Source: Planctomycetota bacterium (GTDB taxonomy: Bacteria; Planctomycetota; Phycisphaerae; Sedimentisphaerales; Anaerohalosphaeraceae). Taken from it: DNA of 11,840 nucleotides. Below the pieces are notes generated by a model, which saw only the letters and a list, made by a program, of their open reading frames with translations, did no database searches and was not told where the DNA came from. The stretch covers positions 1 to 11,840 of the forward strand of contig QNBS01000037.1 of assembly GCA_003644175.1 (NCBI GenBank), in the 5' to 3' direction. Made by a program: the position numbers and the translations under genes. Of this stretch, positions 839 to 9,213 are shown in pieces. Every line of letters starts with the position of its first letter. The first letter of the stretch is position 1.

Positions 839-1981
839 ATGGAACGAATAAACATACAACCGAAATTTTTCCTTTGGGCTCTTGAGCGAAGCGGCAAAAC
901 TGAATCTTCAATAAAGAGTAGGTTTCCGAAGATCGCGGATTGGTTATGTGGCAAAGCTGCCCCTACGCTGAAACAGTTGGAAAAATTTGCAGCTGCAACA
1001 TACACACCTTTAGGTTATTTTTTCCTGAATGAACCGCCTGAGGACAAGTTGCCAATACCTGATTTCAGAACGGTCAACGGTCAACCTGAGCGTCCCAGCC
1101 CAAATTTATTGGACACAATTCAAACCATGCAATCCAGGCGTGAATGGATGCGGGAGTTTTTGGTTGAGGAAGGACAGGAACCGCTATCCTTCATTAAGAG
1201 CGCTACGTTACAAGCAGACCCTGTCAAAGTGGCAACGGAGATGCACACGATTCTCTCTCTCTCTAATGGCTGGGCTAACACAACTCGTACCTGGGCTGAC
1301 GCTTTAAGGTTGTTGCGCAAGGCAATAGAAGACGCAGGTGTTATGATTGTCATTAATGGGGTAGTCGGCAATAACACGCATCGCCCTCTGGATGTGGCGG
1401 AATTTCGGGGGTTCGCTCTCGTTGATGAATATGCACCATTGATTTTCATTAATGGGTGTGATTCCAAATCTGCCCAGATGTTTACTGTTATCCATGAGTT
1501 AAGTCATTTATGGCTGGGCTTTGAAGGGGTATCCAATTTTGATGAATTGCAGCCCGTTGAGACAAATGTGGAAATACTCTGTAATCAGGTTGCAGCAGAG
1601 TTTCTTGTGCCTTCTGACGAGTTCAAAAAAGTTCTGGAAAGAAATCCCATAGGTAATGATGACGGAGTTTTTCAAAATATAGCGAGGAGGTTCAAGGTTA
1701 GTCCTCTTGTGGTTGGACGGCGAGCACTGGATATGAAGTATATCAGCAAGGAACGGTTTTTTGAGTTTTACAATAATTATGCCAAAGAGAGCAAAAAGCT
1801 TAAGCCCAAAAGAGATGGTGGAAATTTCTGGAATACTCAGATAGTTCGCATAGGAGAGCTTTTTGGCGGTGCCGTAGCTCAGGCAACTTTAGAAGGCAGG
1901 CTGCTTTATCGTGACGCATATCGACTCACAGGATTACATGGAAAGAGTTTTGATAAATATGTCGCACAACTTGGTTTTTAG
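839..1981 (+). CDS. Xre-type HTH / ImmA-IrrE (M78) metallopeptidase
   Basis: This 380-residue protein has an N-terminal Xre-like DNA-binding region (about residues 11-62, including APTLKQLEKFAA and PLGYFFL) and a central zinc peptidase domain of the M78/ImmA family. The zinc site is visible: HELSH at 219-223 (His219, Glu220, His223) and a downstream Glu245 in VEILCNQVAAEFLVP as likely third ligand. Residues 300-380 are a C-terminal extension found in longer members. ImmA proteins cleave partner repressors; fused HTH-ImmA proteins commonly act as the antitoxin or regulator of a paired toxin. The ATG at 839 has no strong Shine-Dalgarno sequence. A good promoter lies upstream, and the DUF4411 gene follows after 9 bases, so the two are surely co-transcribed. 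Base composition is more AT-rich than in the arginine genes, suggesting transfer. The domain call is strong; the antitoxin role is inferred. Confidence 0.9.
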   Translation: MERINIQPKFFLWALERSGKTESSIKSRFPKIADWLCGKAAPTLKQLEKFAAATYTPLGYFFLNEPPEDKLPIPDFRTVNGQPERPSPNLLDTIQTMQSRREWMREFLVEEGQEPLSFIKSATLQADPVKVATEMHTILSLSNGWANTTRTWADALRLLRKAIEDAGVMIVINGVVGNNTHRPLDVAEFRGFALVDEYAPLIFINGCDSKSAQMFTVIHELSHLWLGFEGVSNFDELQPVETNVEILCNQVAAEFLVPSDEFKKVLERNPIGNDDGVFQNIARRFKVSPLVVGRRALDMKYISKERFFEFYNNYAKESKKLKPKRDGGNFWNTQIVRIGELFGGAVAQATLEGRLLYRDAYRLTGLHGKSFDKYVAQLGF

Positions 1982-1990
1982 GTTGTAAGT

Positions 1991-2497
1991 ATGCCCGATG
2001 CCGTAAAATATATATTGGATGCAAATATATTCATAGAAGCCAAACGCAGATATTATGCGTTCGATTTGTGTCCCGGATTCTGGAAGGCCTTACTGTATCA
2101 CAACAGCAAGGGTAATCTTGTGAGTATTGACCGTGTTAAAAAAGAACTTTTAGAAGGCAAAGATGATTTAGCGGACTGGAGCAAAAAAACACCTGATTTG
2201 TTTACCTCTACCGATAGTGCGTCAGTTATAAGTGCTTATAGAGCCATCAATCAGTGGGCACAAAATCAAGGTCGTTTCAGTGATACAGCGAAAAGTGAAT
2301 TTGCCGATGATCCGGATGCATGGGTCATTGCTTATGCAAGAGCTAACAATGTGACTGTTGTTACCCATGAACGTTCTGCGAGAAGATCAAGAAAAATCAA
2401 GATCCCGGATGTGTGTGATAAGTTTAGTGTTCAATGCACAAACACCTTTGATATGCTTCAGAGATTAGGAGTAGTTTTTAATTGGAGCGTATCATAA
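1991..2497 (+). CDS. DUF4411 PIN-like protein, putative toxin
   Basis: This 168-residue protein resembles the DUF4411 family, a PIN-like fold. Candidate metal-binding acidic residues are spread as in PIN nucleases: Asp10 in YILDANIFIEA, Glu52 in VKKELLEG, Asp107 and Asp109 in FADDPDAWVIAYA, and Glu127 in VVTHERSA. PIN toxins cut RNA. No RNA target can be read from the sequence. The ATG at 1991 begins 9 bases after the HTH/ImmA stop, consistent with a translationally linked operon. HTH-ImmA plus DUF4411 is a recurring gene pair, so a type II toxin-antitoxin role is likely but not proven here. The AT-rich composition matches its partner and differs from the hydrolase gene that follows. Confidence 0.85.
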   Translation: MPDAVKYILDANIFIEAKRRYYAFDLCPGFWKALLYHNSKGNLVSIDRVKKELLEGKDDLADWSKKTPDLFTSTDSASVISAYRAINQWAQNQGRFSDTAKSEFADDPDAWVIAYARANNVTVVTHERSARRSRKIKIPDVCDKFSVQCTNTFDMLQRLGVVFNWSVS

Positions 2498-3755: not shown

Positions 3756-3798
3756 ATAGCAAATGGAACGATTACGGCGGTGAAGCGTTTTCTTGCAG
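3756..3798 (+). pseudogene. Vestigial duplicate of the argJ 5' end
   Basis: These 43 bases match the start of argJ (4446-4488) without gaps at 35 of 43 positions, a constant offset of 690 bases. Read in frame, the fragment gives ANGTITAVKRFLAG against ANRTITAAKGFLAA in ArgJ. The start codon has become ATA. A perfect AAGGAG lies at 3745-3750, 5 bases before that codon, inside the end of the preceding membrane gene. The match stops abruptly on both sides. The simplest reading is that this was the original argJ start and that the following repeat-rich DNA was inserted with duplication of the gene start. The homology is seen directly; the history is inferred. Confidence 0.75.
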
Positions 3799-3815: not shown

Positions 3816-3828
3816 ATACTAAGTTATT

Positions 3829-3855
3829 CTGGATTCCCGCCTGCGCGGGAATGAC
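3829..3855 (-). repeat. Diverged copy of the 30-bp palindromic repeat
   Basis: This copy shares both arms with the perfect 30-bp repeats (CTGGATTCCCGC and CGCGGGAATGAC) but has CTG instead of TTT in the loop and a different last 3 bases. It has the orientation of the copy at 4346. Its right arm runs directly into the 19-bp tandem array, whose unit looks derived from this arm. Confidence 0.85.
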
Positions 3856-3937
3856 ATTAATGCGCGGGAATGACATTAATGCGCACCAATGACATTAATA
3901 TGCGACAATAGCGTTAATGCACTGGAATGACATTAGT
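3843..3937 (+). repeat. 19-bp tandem array, five units
   Basis: Five consecutive 19-base units start at 3843, 3862, 3881, 3900 and 3919. Units 1 and 2 are identical (GCGCGGGAATGACATTAAT), unit 3 differs by 3 bases, and units 4 and 5 are more decayed. The unit contains the right arm of the neighbouring palindromic repeat plus ATTAAT. It is therefore best explained as slippage amplification of half a palindrome. There are no spacers, so it is not a CRISPR. Confidence 0.85.
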
Positions 3938-3961
3938 ACTCTGTCAAGATAGATTATGCCA

Positions 3962-3991
3962 CTTGTCATTCCCGCGAAAGCGGGAATCCAG
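3962..3991 (+). repeat. 30-bp palindromic repeat, left of the GIY-YIG gene
   Basis: The unit has an 8-bp perfect stem (ATTCCCGC at 3968-3975, GCGGGAAT at 3980-3987) closed by a GAAA loop, with asymmetric ends CTTGTC and CCAG. In RNA the CGAAAG closing would form a stable GNRA tetraloop. The unit is identical to 8340-8369 and is the exact reverse complement of 4346-4375. It ends 11 bases before the GTG start of the GIY-YIG gene, so its hairpin lies in that gene's leader. Confidence 0.93.
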
Positions 3992-4002
3992 AAACGGAAA
4001 CC

Positions 4003-4293
4003 GTGAAGCAATACTTCGTATACATTCTTGCAAGTAAAAGAAATGGGACACTCTACATTGGAGTAACCAACAATTTGAACAAAAGAGTATGGCAGCATAA
4101 GAGCGGGCTGGTCGATGGTTTCACCAAAAAATACAGTGTTGGCATGCTGGTCTATTACGAGCGATTTGGTAACATCGATAGCGCTATAGTGCGAGAAAAA
4201 CGACTAAAAAAGTGGAACAGAAAGTGGAAGCTTGAACTGATCGAGAAGTTCAATCCCGAATGGAAGGATTTGTTTGAAGAGCGGGATTGGTAA
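4003..4293 (+). CDS. Small GIY-YIG nuclease
   Basis: This is a 96-residue single-domain GIY-YIG endonuclease of the short UPF0213-like type. The divergent first motif is FVYIL (Tyr7) and the second is LYIG (Tyr18, Gly20). The catalytic-face Arg28 lies in NKRVWQH with His32, and the metal-binding Glu65 lies in IVREKRLKKW. All catalytic positions of the family are present, so it should be active in cutting DNA. The GTG at 4003 gives the normal N-terminus (KQYFVYILASK), but no good Shine-Dalgarno sequence is visible. The gene lies between two perfect 30-bp inverted repeats (3962-3991 and 4346-4375), in a segment inserted before argJ. That context suggests the nuclease helps mobilise the palindromes. 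This role is inferred and the substrate is unknown. Confidence 0.9.
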   Translation: MKQYFVYILASKRNGTLYIGVTNNLNKRVWQHKSGLVDGFTKKYSVGMLVYYERFGNIDSAIVREKRLKKWNRKWKLELIEKFNPEWKDLFEERDW

Positions 4294-4318
4294 TCGATGC
4301 TTCTTTTTTAATTTGGAT

Positions 4319-4333
4319 TGAGGCTTTGCCTCA
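4319..4333 (+). terminator. Hairpin after the GIY-YIG gene
   Basis: TGAGGC-TTT-GCCTCA forms a perfect 6-bp stem with a 3-base loop, 25 bases after the GIY-YIG stop. A T-rich run (4300-4308) lies before it, and a short TATTTTAT follows after 5 bases. It is a weak intrinsic terminator candidate. Confidence 0.4.
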
Positions 4334-4345
4334 GGCTATTTTATG

Positions 4346-4375
4346 CTGGATTCCCGCTTTCGCGGGAATGACAAG
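4346..4375 (-). repeat. 30-bp palindromic repeat, right of the GIY-YIG gene
   Basis: This is the exact reverse complement, over all 30 bases, of the copy at 3962-3991. The two face each other across the GIY-YIG gene like terminal inverted repeats, 354 bases apart. Its right part (from 4358) is repeated once more 35 bases downstream. Confidence 0.93.
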
Positions 4376-4417
4376 GGGGGCGGGTAACCGGGTTTCGCGG
4401 GAATGACAAGGGGGGCG
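4358..4417 (+). repeat. 25-bp direct duplication of the palindrome's right arm
   Basis: Bases 4358-4382 and 4393-4417 are identical over 25 positions at a 35-base period. Each copy includes the GCGGGAATGACAAG arm and the following G-run. It is a local tandem duplication between the palindrome and the argJ ribosome-binding site. Confidence 0.85.
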
Positions 4418-4445: not shown

Positions 4446-5648
4446 ATGGCAAACAGGACGATTACGGCGGCGAAGGGTTTTCTGGCGGCTGGTGTGGCTT
4501 GCGGGATCAAGCGTTCGGGCAAGCCGGATATGGCTGTGTTACACTGCCCGGCAGGCGCCACGGCGGCGGCGGTCTTTACCACCAATCGCATTGTCTCAGC
4601 GGCCGTAGAGGTGTGTCGCGAGCATGTCAAGCGGCCCAAGGTGTACGGTGTGGTGGTCAATTCCGGCAACGCCAACGCCTGCACCGGCAAGAAGGGGATC
4701 GCCGACGCCATCGGTATGTGCAAGACGACGGCGCAGCAGTTGAACGTCGCCGGCGGTGATATTCTGGTCGCATCGACCGGGATCATCGGCGAAACGCTGC
4801 CCATGAAAAAGATCACTGTCGGAATCGAAAAGGCGGCGGCAAAGTTGTCGGCAAGGGCCAGGGCAGGCGCAAGTTTCGCCAGGGCGATTATGACAACGGA
4901 TACGCGGCCCAAGCAGGCCGTGCGCAAGGTGCGGATGTCGGGCAGGGAGATAACGATTGCCGGCGCCGTCAAGGGCGCAGGGATGATCGGGCCGAACATG
5001 GCGACGACAATATGCGTGATCACCACCGATGTCGCGATACGCAAGCGGCTTTTGCAGAAGGCGCTGCGGGATGCAATCGGCGGGTCGCTAAACAAGCTCA
5101 CCGTCGACGGCCACCAGAGCACCAACGATACGGCGATGATATTGGCGTCCGGCGCCGCCGAGAACCCTCCGATTACAGGCCAGTGTCCGCGATACAGGAA
5201 ATTGGCAAAAACCTTAGGCGATTTGTGCGAGGACCTCGTAATGCAGATGGCCCTGGATGCCGAAGGCGCTACACGGGTATTCAAGGTCGTCGTCAAGGGC
5301 GCCGCGAGCAAGGCCGACGCCGCCAAAGCCGCCCGTGCCGTCGCCGATTACGACCTCGTCAAATGCGCCGTCGGCGGCGGCGACCCCAACTGGGGCAGGA
5401 TTATCTGTGCAGTGGGGTCATGCGGGGCGAAACTAAAACCCGAAAAGCTGAGTTGCAGGATAGGTGATATCAGTGTCTTTAGAAACGGCAAACCCGCAAA
5501 ATTCGACGCCAGGAAGGCCGGCAAGGTCGTTTCCCGGCAATTTCACAGCATTACCGTCGATCTGGGGGCGGGCAAATTTACGGATTTCTGTTACGGATGC
5601 GATTTGAGCAAAGAATATGTGACAATTAACGCCGATTACCACACATAG
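4446..5648 (+). CDS. argJ: Glutamate N-acetyltransferase / ornithine acetyltransferase
   Basis: ArgJ moves the acetyl group from N-acetylornithine to glutamate and in many bacteria also makes N-acetylglutamate from acetyl-CoA, closing the cyclic arginine pathway. The 400-residue length is normal. The self-cleavage site is clear: in GAGMIGPNMATT the precursor is expected to split between Ala186 and Thr187, exposing the nucleophilic Thr187 of the beta chain. Other landmarks are VNSGNANACTG (residues 71-81), ASTGIIGE (109-116), TVDGHQSTNDT, GGDPNWGRI and the usual C-terminal end INADYHT. The ATG at 4446 has GGAAGG at 4431-4436 upstream. The gene lies downstream of the GIY-YIG/palindrome unit, and a decayed copy of its first 43 bases sits 690 bases upstream (3756-3798). 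Whether it can act on acetyl-CoA cannot be told from sequence. Confidence 0.96.
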   Translation: MANRTITAAKGFLAAGVACGIKRSGKPDMAVLHCPAGATAAAVFTTNRIVSAAVEVCREHVKRPKVYGVVVNSGNANACTGKKGIADAIGMCKTTAQQLNVAGGDILVASTGIIGETLPMKKITVGIEKAAAKLSARARAGASFARAIMTTDTRPKQAVRKVRMSGREITIAGAVKGAGMIGPNMATTICVITTDVAIRKRLLQKALRDAIGGSLNKLTVDGHQSTNDTAMILASGAAENPPITGQCPRYRKLAKTLGDLCEDLVMQMALDAEGATRVFKVVVKGAASKADAAKAARAVADYDLVKCAVGGGDPNWGRIICAVGSCGAKLKPEKLSCRIGDISVFRNGKPAKFDARKAGKVVSRQFHSITVDLGAGKFTDFCYGCDLSKEYVTINADYHT

Positions 5649-8266: not shown

Positions 8267-8339
8267 GATGTGACGCCGGTAGTCCGCGTTGTGGTTTATA
8301 TGTGGAAAGGGGTAACACTTTAGCCAAGTGTGAGATTTG

Positions 8340-8369
8340 CTTGTCATTCCCGCGAAAGCGGGAATCCAG
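8340..8369 (+). repeat. 30-bp palindromic repeat before rsfS
   Basis: This copy is identical over all 30 bases to 3962-3991, 4.4 kb away, including the GAAA loop and the asymmetric CTTGTC and CCAG ends. It shows that the family is dispersed and recently active or homogenised. Confidence 0.93.
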
Positions 8370-8389
8370 TATAAAACAGCTTCCGCCGC

Positions 8390-8420
8390 AGAGCCTGCCC
8401 TGAGCGTAGCCGAACGGGCG
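8390..8420 (+). repeat. Possible second dispersed repeat piece
   Basis: The segment around CCTGAGCGTAGCCGAACGGG resembles another short repeat that I recall as common between genes in GC-rich bacterial genomes, often next to the palindrome seen here. Only one copy is present in this window, so the repeat status rests on recall and not on internal evidence. Confidence 0.35.
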
Positions 8421-8468
8421 GTTTCCTGCTTCTTGCACACGTGGCTAAAATATTACGGAAAGGGTAAC

Positions 8469-8849: not shown

Positions 8850-8969
8850 ATGCCTGAGATTTGTAGATTTTACGGTATCATTATAGCCATGTTTTTTGAT
8901 GACCACAATCCGCCTCATTTCCACGCAAGATATGGGTGTCTTAATGATACACGATGTTATCAAAGCTGA
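8850..8969 (+). pseudogene. Truncated DUF4160 gene
   Basis: The ATG at 8850 has a good AGGAG 6 bases upstream (8839-8843). The product begins MPEICRFYGIIIAMFF and DDHNPPHFHARYG, a clear N-terminal half of DUF4160, a short family of about 80-90 residues. After residue 29 the match stops and ten unrelated residues lead to TGA at 8967-8969, giving only 39 residues. About 50 residues of the C-terminal half are missing. The ORF overlaps the start of the DUF2442 gene by 26 bases. In other genomes DUF4160 and DUF2442 genes are commonly adjacent, so a deletion has probably removed the end of DUF4160 and the gap between the two. It may still serve as a leader that couples translation. Confidence 0.7.
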
Positions 8970-9213
8970 ATACAAAGCAGACTACAAAATACAGTTGGTC
9001 TTTGATGACGGCAAGACCGGGCTTGTAGATTTCTCAAAGTTTATCGCAAAGGGGGGCGTTTTTAAAAAACTCGAAGATCACGAATTTTTCAAAAATTTCA
9101 CCATAAACAAAGACCTTGGTGTGATTAGCTGGAACAATGAAATCGATATTGCACCGGAAACCCTCTATAGCGAAGCAACCAATACACCATTGCCGGAATG
9201 GATGACAGAGTAA
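8944..9213 (+). CDS. DUF2442 family protein
   Basis: This 89-residue protein of the DUF2442 family has no established biochemical role. It begins MIHDVIKAEYKADYKIQLVFDDG and ends with the family's conserved tail (GVISWNNEIDIAPETLYSEA, then TPLPEWMTE). It looks complete. The ATG at 8944 is preferred because homologues start there; in-frame ATGs at 8932 and 8896 would add residues encoded inside the DUF4160 fragment. It overlaps that fragment in another frame, so translation may be coupled. DUF4160-DUF2442 pairs have been suggested to be toxin-antitoxin-like; if so, this module has lost half of one partner. The stop lies 8 bases before the argS start. Confidence 0.8.
   Translation: MIHDVIKAEYKADYKIQLVFDDGKTGLVDFSKFIAKGGVFKKLEDHEFFKNFTINKDLGVISWNNEIDIAPETLYSEATNTPLPEWMTE

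What the first reader, a model, noticed from the sequence alone, without database searches (positions are those of the whole stretch)
3962..4375. GIY-YIG nuclease gene bracketed by perfect 30-bp inverted palindromes: a candidate minimal mobile unit
The two 30-base copies are exact reverse complements facing each other across a complete GIY-YIG gene, and each is itself a hairpin with an 8-bp stem. A DNA nuclease enclosed by the same palindromes that are scattered elsewhere in the window recalls the RAYT/REP partnership, but with a different nuclease class. GIY-YIG enzymes mobilise some homing elements. The working idea is that this nuclease spreads the palindrome, with the whole 414-bp unit as the autonomous form and single palindromes as the non-autonomous form. 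I do not know of an established description of this pairing, and cannot search for one.
Basis: partly seen in the sequence, partly recalled or inferred. Interest (0 to 1): 0.78.

Follow-up and report, generated by a model that had tools for sequence, protein, structure and literature searches.

The report
Nuclease gene paired with bacterial palindromes
A tiny DNA-cutting-enzyme gene sits between two copies of a scattered hairpin repeat, and many relatives of that gene in very different bacteria sit between similar hairpins, which suggests it is the missing partner that spreads this large class of bacterial repeats.

Summary
A 96-codon GIY-YIG gene (4003-4293) lies between perfect 30-bp inverted copies (3962-3991, 4346-4375) of a repeat present 118 times in the assembly. 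The repeat is a CGTC-1 REP by Di Nocera's 2013 definition; [quoted passage not shown] The pairing generalises: of 145 GIY-YIG relatives, 126 have an xGTC/xCTC-tagged palindrome within 250 bp and 97 on both sides, against 105 and 11 of 919 control ORFs. The Y1 (RAYT-type) transposase loci and other small GIY-YIG genes fetched from REP-rich genomes lack them. Flanking REP sequence tracks protein sequence (Mantel r 0.54). In 392 genomes of the phylum, gene presence predicts REP copies (odds ratio 34), though 15 genomes with 5 or more REPs count as gene-negative. The unit is present or absent at orthologous sites, exists as two diverged copies in one genome, and has decayed and palindrome-only forms. 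Best reading: a 'CGTC REPtron' built on a GIY-YIG nuclease. Cleavage and copying are inferred. A 2025 paper on GIY-YIG 'Ssn' single-strand nucleases, recalled but not retrievable here, may cover part of this.

The parts
3962..3991 (+). left REP (CGTC-1 type): TGTC tag outward, 8-bp stem, GAAA loop, CCAG tail
4003..4293 (+). GIY-YIG nuclease gene, 96 aa; Y7, G20, R28, N84 invariant and Y18, E65 at least 90% conserved in an alignment of 63 sequences
4346..4375 (-). right REP, exact reverse complement of the left one, tag outward (head-head dimer)
3827..3856 (-). further REP of the cluster (loop GCAG)
3842..3955 (+). 19-bp tandem array that begins inside that REP (TGCGCGGGAATGACATTAA units, decaying)
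   Evidence: D1
4388..4410 (-). partial REP; the relative L012 has a longer stretch with a REP pair here
8317..8451 (+). MITE-like element with imperfect inverted ends (ACTTTAGCCAAGTGTGAG / GCACACGTGGCTAAAAT) carrying REP 8340-8369; absent from the close relative G001
   Evidence: end coordinates read by eye
3756..3796 (+). 41-bp copy (83%) of the argJ 5' end 4446-4486, so the REP/GIY cluster is bracketed by a direct repeat
   Evidence: (D8)

Best explanation
The 414-bp stretch is an autonomous 'CGTC REPtron': a minimal mobile unit made of a head-head pair of CGTC-tagged REPs around a single-domain GIY-YIG nuclease. Shown here: this nuclease subfamily is physically paired with xGTC-tagged palindromes in many phyla; the palindrome sequence follows the protein sequence; the unit exists as two diverged copies in one genome, is present or absent at orthologous sites, and has decayed (REP-remnant-REP) and palindrome-only forms. 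Inferred: the nuclease recognises the tagged hairpin, most likely as single-stranded DNA (replication forks, transcription bubbles, incoming DNA), and nicks it. The freed end is then copied into a new place by host replication or repair, which spreads either the whole unit or the gene-less palindromes, dimers and singles. As in RAYT/REP systems, the enzyme gene is a low-copy driver and the palindromes are the high-copy non-autonomous form, but the chemistry would be GIY-YIG hydrolysis rather than a HUH tyrosine linkage.
For: (1) Enrichment: 126 of 145 relatives have a generic tagged palindrome within 250 bp and 97 on both sides, against 105 and 11 of 919 control ORFs (mechanical ORFs of 70-400 aa, over 600 bp away in the same loci); strict AT-stem definition 109/76 of 145 against 46/8 of 919. 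Density is 10.3/kb in the 50 bp upstream and 0.01-0.15/kb at 500-3000 bp upstream; 1 in 444 kb of dinucleotide shuffles. (2) Layout: of the 97 two-sided loci, the nearest pair is head-head (tags outward) in 66; median tag distance, where an outward tag was found, 49 bp upstream (102 loci) and 54 bp past the last aligned codon (101 loci). (3) Specificity: 30 Y1_Tnp loci (of 35 matches listed) from 12 REP-rich genomes hold 1 strict REP in 90,223 bases, about 420 bp from its gene; 0 of 12 fetched small GIY-YIG genes of other subfamilies from REP-rich genomes have one within 250 bp. (4) Co-diversification: Mantel r=0.54, n=127, 0 of 2000 permutations; pruned to 48 proteins r=0.47, 0 of 2000; the two REPs of a unit resemble each other (0.310 against 0.577+-0.016 shuffled, 99 loci). 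(5) Copy number: REP>=2 in 32 of 43 gene-positive and 27 of 349 gene-negative genomes, p 1e-21. (6) Unit ends: L013 and L014, one genome, unlike flanks, 363 bp at 81%, ending within 3 bp of the outer tags. (7) Polymorphism: Azospirillum sufB-unit-sufC against three relatives without it; Sphingobium full unit / palindrome only / nothing at one site; upstream of argJ, unit in G000 and G001, 140-bp REP-remnant-REP in G446, neither in L235, L236, L239.
Against: No enzymatic activity was tested. 15 of 349 gene-negative genomes have >=5 REPs (one of them, G228, has a weaker match at 4e-13). Of nine of these searched with PF01541, G326 (50 REPs) gave no hit at all (not even UvrC, so the search may miss some) and G133 (119) only long, UvrC-like ones. 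19 of 145 relatives have no palindrome near. In the gonococcal relative the nearest two REPs are not in head-head order. Y1_Tnp presence also tracks REP copies (39 of 41 REP>=5 genomes, 183 of 351 others; read by hand, test). No target duplications around 19 REP clusters. Many REPs examined in this genome lie inside longer inverted repeats that some other transposase could move. GIY-YIG enzymes hydrolyse DNA and have no known joining activity (recalled), so copying must be borrowed from the host. The Mantel result could partly be common descent of a linked pair.
Confidence: 0.62

Rival explanations
1. Single-strand nuclease with a guarding role: the protein is an Ssn-type GIY-YIG enzyme that cuts single-stranded DNA at the repeats, limiting uptake or recombination; REPs are its target marks and spread by other means.
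For: A Neisseria gonorrhoeae relative (59.6% identity) sits among CGTC-1/dRS3-type repeats, not in simple head-head order (L244). The Ssn literature is recalled, not retrieved (searches found no copy). In Planktothrix plasmid p1 the gene lies between MmeI and DISARM drmA.
Against: Does not by itself explain the head-head packaging of the gene, the two diverged copies in one genome or the decayed unit. It is compatible with the best explanation, since the same cut could serve both.
Confidence: 0.2
2. Passenger: the GIY-YIG gene is cargo carried inside a composite of REPs that some other enzyme (Y1 transposase, MITE transposase) mobilises.
For: REPs in this genome sit inside MITE-like elements with their own inverted ends; Y1_Tnp genes are present in 39 of 41 REP>=5 genomes.
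Against: Cargo should vary, but in only 2 of 919 control ORFs is the nearest pair head-head, against 66 of 145 GIY genes. The Y1_Tnp loci fetched from REP-rich genomes are not near REPs (1 REP in 90 kb), in line with Di Nocera's statement that none of the tyrosine transposase genes of CGTC-positive species was flanked by CGTC sequences.
Confidence: 0.1
3. Hairpins as gene parts: the REPs around the gene work only as RNA structures (terminator, mRNA stabiliser, autoregulation) and happen to be drawn from the abundant repeat.
For: REPs are often plausibly transcribed and near gene ends (PMC3733652, abstract and passages).
Against: Would not predict a tagged palindrome upstream in reverse orientation, genome copy number tracking the gene, or presence/absence of the whole unit.
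Confidence: 0.05
4. Chance or insertion hot spot: REPs land next to any small foreign gene.
For: A single window could be chance.
Against: Control ORFs, Y1_Tnp loci and other small GIY-YIG genes are not flanked at such rates.
Confidence: 0.01

Closest known systems
REPtron / RAYT (TnpA-REP, HUH Y1 transposase) with GTAG REPs
   Same: Low-copy enzyme gene bracketed by inverted copies of a tagged palindrome that is scattered genome-wide as single units and dimers
   Different: Enzyme is GIY-YIG, not HUH/Y1; tag is xGTC, not GTAG; gene is sometimes multi-copy (up to 11 matches in one genome)
CGTC-tagged REPs (Di Nocera 2013), including Neisseria dRS3 and Rickettsia RPE-4/6
   Same: Palindromes of the window meet the CGTC-1 definition (tag, 8-bp stem, 4-nt loop, CCA tail), head-head dimers included
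   Different: That paper found no dedicated transposase and has 0 occurrences of GIY-YIG
Ssn single-strand-specific GIY-YIG nucleases (recalled: Chenal et al. 2025; not in the library)
   Same: Probably the same protein family; as recalled, the Neisseria enzyme cuts a sequence repeated many times in its genome
   Different: As recalled, presented as a nuclease family affecting transformation, not as a repeat-spreading mobile unit; I could not check whether flanking repeats are reported
UPF0213 GIY-YIG proteins of solved structure (1zg2, 1ywl)
   Same: Similar size and GIY-YIG fold: 1zg2 Foldseek E 5.2e-4, phmmer 1e-3; 1ywl Foldseek E 7.5e-3, phmmer 1.6e-4
   Different: 25-28% identity in the structural alignments; listed only as hypothetical UPF0213 proteins
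Penelope-like elements and homing GIY-YIG endonucleases
   Same: GIY-YIG nuclease as the DNA-cutting part of a mobile element (recalled)
   Different: No reverse transcriptase, intron or large specificity domain here; ends are hairpins

Membership tests
CGTC-1 REP | CGTC/TGTC/CCTC tag at one end, 8-bp stem starting AT, 4-nt loop, CCA tail (PMC3733652) | tested here: met
   Direct reading of 3962-3991 against the definition
CGTC-1 REP | High copy number, mostly intergenic, head-head dimers common | tested here: met
   118 copies; 9 of 20 fetched loci hold a head-head dimer at 63-bp tag spacing, but about half of the 20 were picked because one search showed a pair there. Intergenic position not tested genome-wide
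GIY-YIG nuclease | PF01541 domain with catalytic Y, Y, R, E, N | tested here: met
   Y7, G20, R28, N84 invariant, Y18 and E65 at least 90% in 63 sequences; AlphaFold mean pLDDT 93.4
REPtron (RAYT type) | HUH/Y1 transposase gene | tested here: not met
   The enclosed gene is PF01541; the Y1_Tnp loci fetched from REP-rich genomes lack these REPs
REPtron (as an architecture) | Enzyme gene flanked by the cognate palindrome in opposite orientation, palindrome scattered elsewhere | tested here: met
Classical insertion sequence | Short target-site duplication of constant length | tested here: not met
   19 clusters in G000: matched scores no higher than mismatched. Around 97 GIY units direct repeats are in excess (11 at score >=16 against 0.5% of mismatched pairs), but the strongest look like REP-array repeats and lengths vary
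Ssn nuclease | Cuts single-stranded DNA at a specific sequence | not testable with these tools
   Recalled family; bench assay needed
Mobile unit | Unit present/absent at orthologous sites; copies at unrelated sites with ends at the palindromes | tested here: met

The most novel reading that the evidence does not exclude
A lone, one-domain GIY-YIG nuclease with no transposase or ligase drives a whole superfamily of bacterial palindromes (CGTC REPs, including Neisseria dRS3 and Rickettsia RPE, and probably the wider xGTC palindromes such as TGTCATCCTGAGCGCAGCGAAGGATC). That would be a second, chemically independent invention of the REP/RAYT system, spreading by nick-and-copy through host repair.
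Probability: 0.45. Interest if true: 0.9.

Novelty: new variant of a known kind. Interest (0 to 1): 0.76.

Why it matters
CGTC REPs are one of the two large REP super-families, and their mover was explicitly listed as missing in 2013. A consistently linked nuclease gives that question a named candidate that can be assayed with one small protein and one oligonucleotide. It would also explain many unnamed palindromes in environmental genomes, and would link repeat spread to control of single-stranded DNA.

Tried and rejected
Target-site duplications: the argJ 41-bp repeat and a 19-bp match near 8300/8450 suggested them. Around 97 GIY units, direct repeats are in excess (score >=16 in 11, against 0.5% of mismatched pairs), but the best ones (L137, L038, L086, L219) look like REP-array repeats, and 19 REP clusters of the genome show none. 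Of 20 family loci with argJ only the window and its close relative carry the argJ duplication. Rejected as a general feature.

RAYT as mover: tested by proximity and not supported, although Y1_Tnp presence also correlates with REP count.

My strict REP motif (AT-starting 8-9 bp stem) missed other tagged classes, so a generic one was added after seeing the misses; both are reported. Rows dropped or repeated: one search dropped L074 and L134 as identical in gene sequence to L073 and L054; L138 and L144 are the same places as L080 and L077 but stayed in the 145; the Mantel set still held such duplicates in its n=127, not in the pruned 48. L203 (same as L013), L221 and L010 (the genome's second GIY-YIG copy, no strict REP in 2,883 bases) were not in the set. 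The 80 loci are the best 80 of 447, chosen by similarity, not at random. The 40 paralogue regions are part of the matches, whose list was cut. 10 of 31 plasmid records and 17 loci of the matches were examined for flanks. Five genomes with matches between 1e-20 and 1e-10 count as gene-negative. One search's printed list was cut; its totals and those are complete. A DUF2442 presence control was planned and not obtained.

L224 was not used as an empty site because its orientation was not verified. Phages: no relative.

Full report
OBSERVATION. The window is G000:C37:1-11840 of a 2.51-Mb, 405-contig assembly, 76.6% complete. It carries ArgC-like, M78 peptidase (IrrE-like)/DUF4411, carbon-nitrogen hydrolase, ArgJ, proton-pumping pyrophosphatase, RsfS, DUF2442 and arginyl-tRNA synthetase genes (the ArgC, pyrophosphatase and synthetase names are from reading, not from a search). 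Positions 3962-3991 and 4346-4375 are exact reverse complements, each TGTC-ATTCCCGC-GAAA-GCGGGAAT-CCAG. Between them lies one complete ORF, 4003-4293, 96 aa, PF01541 E 1.3e-16. The assembly holds 118 copies of the palindrome with at most 3 mismatches, none for the reversed control.

WHAT THE PALINDROME IS. Di Nocera et al. 2013 (PMC3733652; abstract, parts 1-3 of 8 of the text and find-passages seen) define CGTC REPs: CGTC, TGTC or CCTC tag, 8- or 9-bp stem almost always starting AT, 4-5 nt loop, tail mostly CCA, mostly head-head dimers; Neisseria dRS3 and Rickettsia RPE-4/6 belong here. The window repeat meets the CGTC-1 definition. [quoted passage not shown] GIY-YIG has 0 occurrences in it.

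DOES THE PAIRING RECUR. A scan of the genome-contig collection gave 447 relatives, of which the best 80 were fetched, by their record titles from many phyla. A strict REP lies within 300 bp of 73 of the 80 and on both sides of 57. Density falls from 10.3/kb (0-50 bp upstream) to 0.13, 0.15 and 0.01/kb (500-1000, 1000-2000, 2000-3000 bp), and from 8.8/kb downstream to 0.00-0.29/kb beyond 500 bp; dinucleotide shuffles give 1 in 444 kb. With paralogues from multi-copy genomes, loci of the window's phylum and plasmid records, 145 genes were tested (two of them, L138 and L144, repeat L080 and L077). Generic tagged palindrome: any 126, both sides 97, nearest pair head-head 66; control ORFs 105, 11 and 2 of 919. 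Strict: 109, 76, 56 against 46, 8, 2. By source, generic any/both: 72/61 of 79, 30/21 of 39, 14/8 of 17, 10/7 of 10. Divergent relatives sit beside other tagged palindromes such as TGTCATCCTGAGCGCAGCGAAGGATC or CGTCACCCCGGGCTTGACCCGGGGTC.

SPECIFICITY. Thirty Y1_Tnp loci (of 35 matches listed) from 12 REP-rich genomes contain one strict REP in 90,223 bases. Twelve fetched small GIY-YIG genes of other subfamilies from REP-rich genomes have none within 250 bp; of seven long UvrC-like ones, one has a strict REP within about 250 bp (gene positions in these loci taken from the match coordinates and flank length).

CO-DIVERSIFICATION. Protein distance and distance of the nearest palindrome correlate (r=0.54, n=127; after pruning related proteins r=0.47, n=48; 0 of 2000 permutations each). 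The two palindromes of one unit are more alike than shuffled pairs (0.310 against 0.577+-0.016; 99 loci). Vertical co-inheritance could contribute.

COPY NUMBER. The tool names no organisms; I take the phylum to be Planctomycetota because the 96%-identical relative L012 bears that name and shares the locus. In 392 genomes of the phylum, drawn with a completeness floor of 80% (own genome included although below it), the gene at E<=1e-20 is in 43; REP>=2 in 32 of 43 and 27 of 349; REP>=5 in 26 of 43 and 15 of 349, odds ratio 34 (counts copied by hand from the listings; five genomes with weaker matches count as negative). The pattern used sees CGTC-1-like REPs only, so gene-positive genomes with other palindrome classes score zero. 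Against: REP-rich genomes without the gene exist. Of nine such genomes searched with PF01541, one (G326) has no hit at all, four have only long UvrC-like hits, and four have small GIY-YIG genes, those fetched unlinked to REPs. Y1_Tnp also correlates (39 of 41 against 183 of 351, odds ratio 18), but the loci fetched are not near the repeats.

MOBILITY. (a) L013 and L014, one genome: 363 bp at 81%, ends within 3 bp of both outer tags, flanks without detected homology. Over 1,246 locus pairs, homology stops within 6 bp of the tag 222 times on the left and 152 on the right, and runs past it 15 and 18 times; most comparisons end before it (570, 546). REPs resemble each other anyway, so this is supportive, not proof. 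(b) Azospirillum lipoferum 4B carries the unit between sufB and sufC; A. ramasamyi, A. oryzae and strain B510 do not. (c) Sphingobium, one site between fnrL and a response regulator: TomTYG46 and TomTYG73 have palindrome-gene-palindrome (the TomTYG73 gene looks frameshifted), TomTYG64 and, less perfectly, TomTYG74 only one palindrome tagged at both ends, TomTYG72 neither; direction of change is not shown. (d) Upstream of argJ in the window's family: unit in G000 and its relative G001 (G450, same contig and place, same genus); in G446 a 140-bp REP-remnant-REP with only about the first 19 codons of the gene recognisable; in L235, L236 and L239 the two neighbours lie 194, 34 and 60 bp apart without it; in most of the other family loci the hydrolase neighbour was not found within the stretch. 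(e) The REP element at 8317-8451 is absent from G001, whose flanks are 90-92% identical.

STRUCTURE OF THE NON-AUTONOMOUS FORMS. Of 20 REP loci fetched from this genome (about half picked because one search showed a pair), nine are head-head heterodimers with a constant 63-bp tag spacing, most of them inside an imperfect outer inverted repeat (TAGTTCCTGTTGCGGAAA); others lie in a second MITE-like family with ends like TTTAGCCA-GTGTG. No target duplication was found.

PROTEIN. AlphaFold2 on an alignment of 63 sequences: mean pLDDT 93.4. Closest solved folds: UPF0213 1zg2, Slx1, 1ywl, and further down the UvrC N-domain. There is no extra DNA-binding domain, so hairpin recognition would have to lie in the nuclease domain itself (inference).

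MECHANISM. Shown: pairing, orientation, specificity, co-diversification, copy-number link, presence/absence. Inferred: hairpin recognition as single strand, nicking near the tag, copying by host repair. The head-head dimer and the decayed unit fit a driver that loses its gene and leaves mobilisable palindromes, as in RAYT/REP. The absence of target duplications argues against staggered double-strand integration.

LITERATURE. In ten searches of an open-access library no title or abstract start that was listed joins GIY-YIG with REPs; lists were cut. Find-passages of PMC12306157, PMC8266576 and PMC6006769 hold no 'GIY'. From memory only: Chenal et al. 2025, a GIY-YIG single-strand site-specific nuclease family (Ssn) in Neisseria whose site is repeated in the genome. 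If correct it supports the cutting step and lowers novelty; the library does not hold it. A gonococcal relative here lies among dRS3-type repeats, though its nearest two REPs are not in head-head order.

VERDICT. The association is secure; the claim that the nuclease spreads the repeat is likely but unproven.

Noticed in passing
window 3756-3796 and 4446-4486: The argJ 5' end is partly duplicated (83%) upstream of the REP/GIY cluster; shared with relative G001 and not seen in the other 18 family loci examined.
   Followed up: partly
G000 loci L182-L187, L189, L191, L199: A MITE-like family of about 130 bp with imperfect inverted ends like TAGTTCCTGTTGCGGAAA enclosing a REP head-head heterodimer; its transposase was not sought.
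   Followed up: partly
window 839-2497: IrrE-like M78 peptidase/antitoxin-type gene followed by DUF4411: looks like a toxin-antitoxin pair.
   Followed up: no
window 8851-9213: Short ORF beginning MPEICRFYG, apparently cut off early (from reading, DUF4160-like by recall), followed by DUF2442 (antitoxin DhiA-like, below cut-off): a possibly broken toxin-antitoxin pair.
   Followed up: no
L253, L254: Palindrome tagged at both ends (CCGTCACCCCGGG-TCAAG-CCCGGGGTGACGG in L253, a less perfect one in L254) at the site where relatives carry the full unit: excision product or insertion target.
   Followed up: partly
L217 (G132): Three GIY-YIG matches close together, each preceded by TGTCATTGCGAGGGTCTTTTCCGAAGCAATC.
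   Followed up: no
L122-L131 (G011), L026: One alphaproteobacterial MAG had 11 matches to this protein, two of them cut by contig ends, some beside palindromes of several different classes and some beside none.
   Followed up: partly
L245, Planktothrix agardhii plasmid p1: The GIY-YIG gene lies between a type IIL restriction enzyme (MmeI) and DISARM drmA.
   Followed up: no
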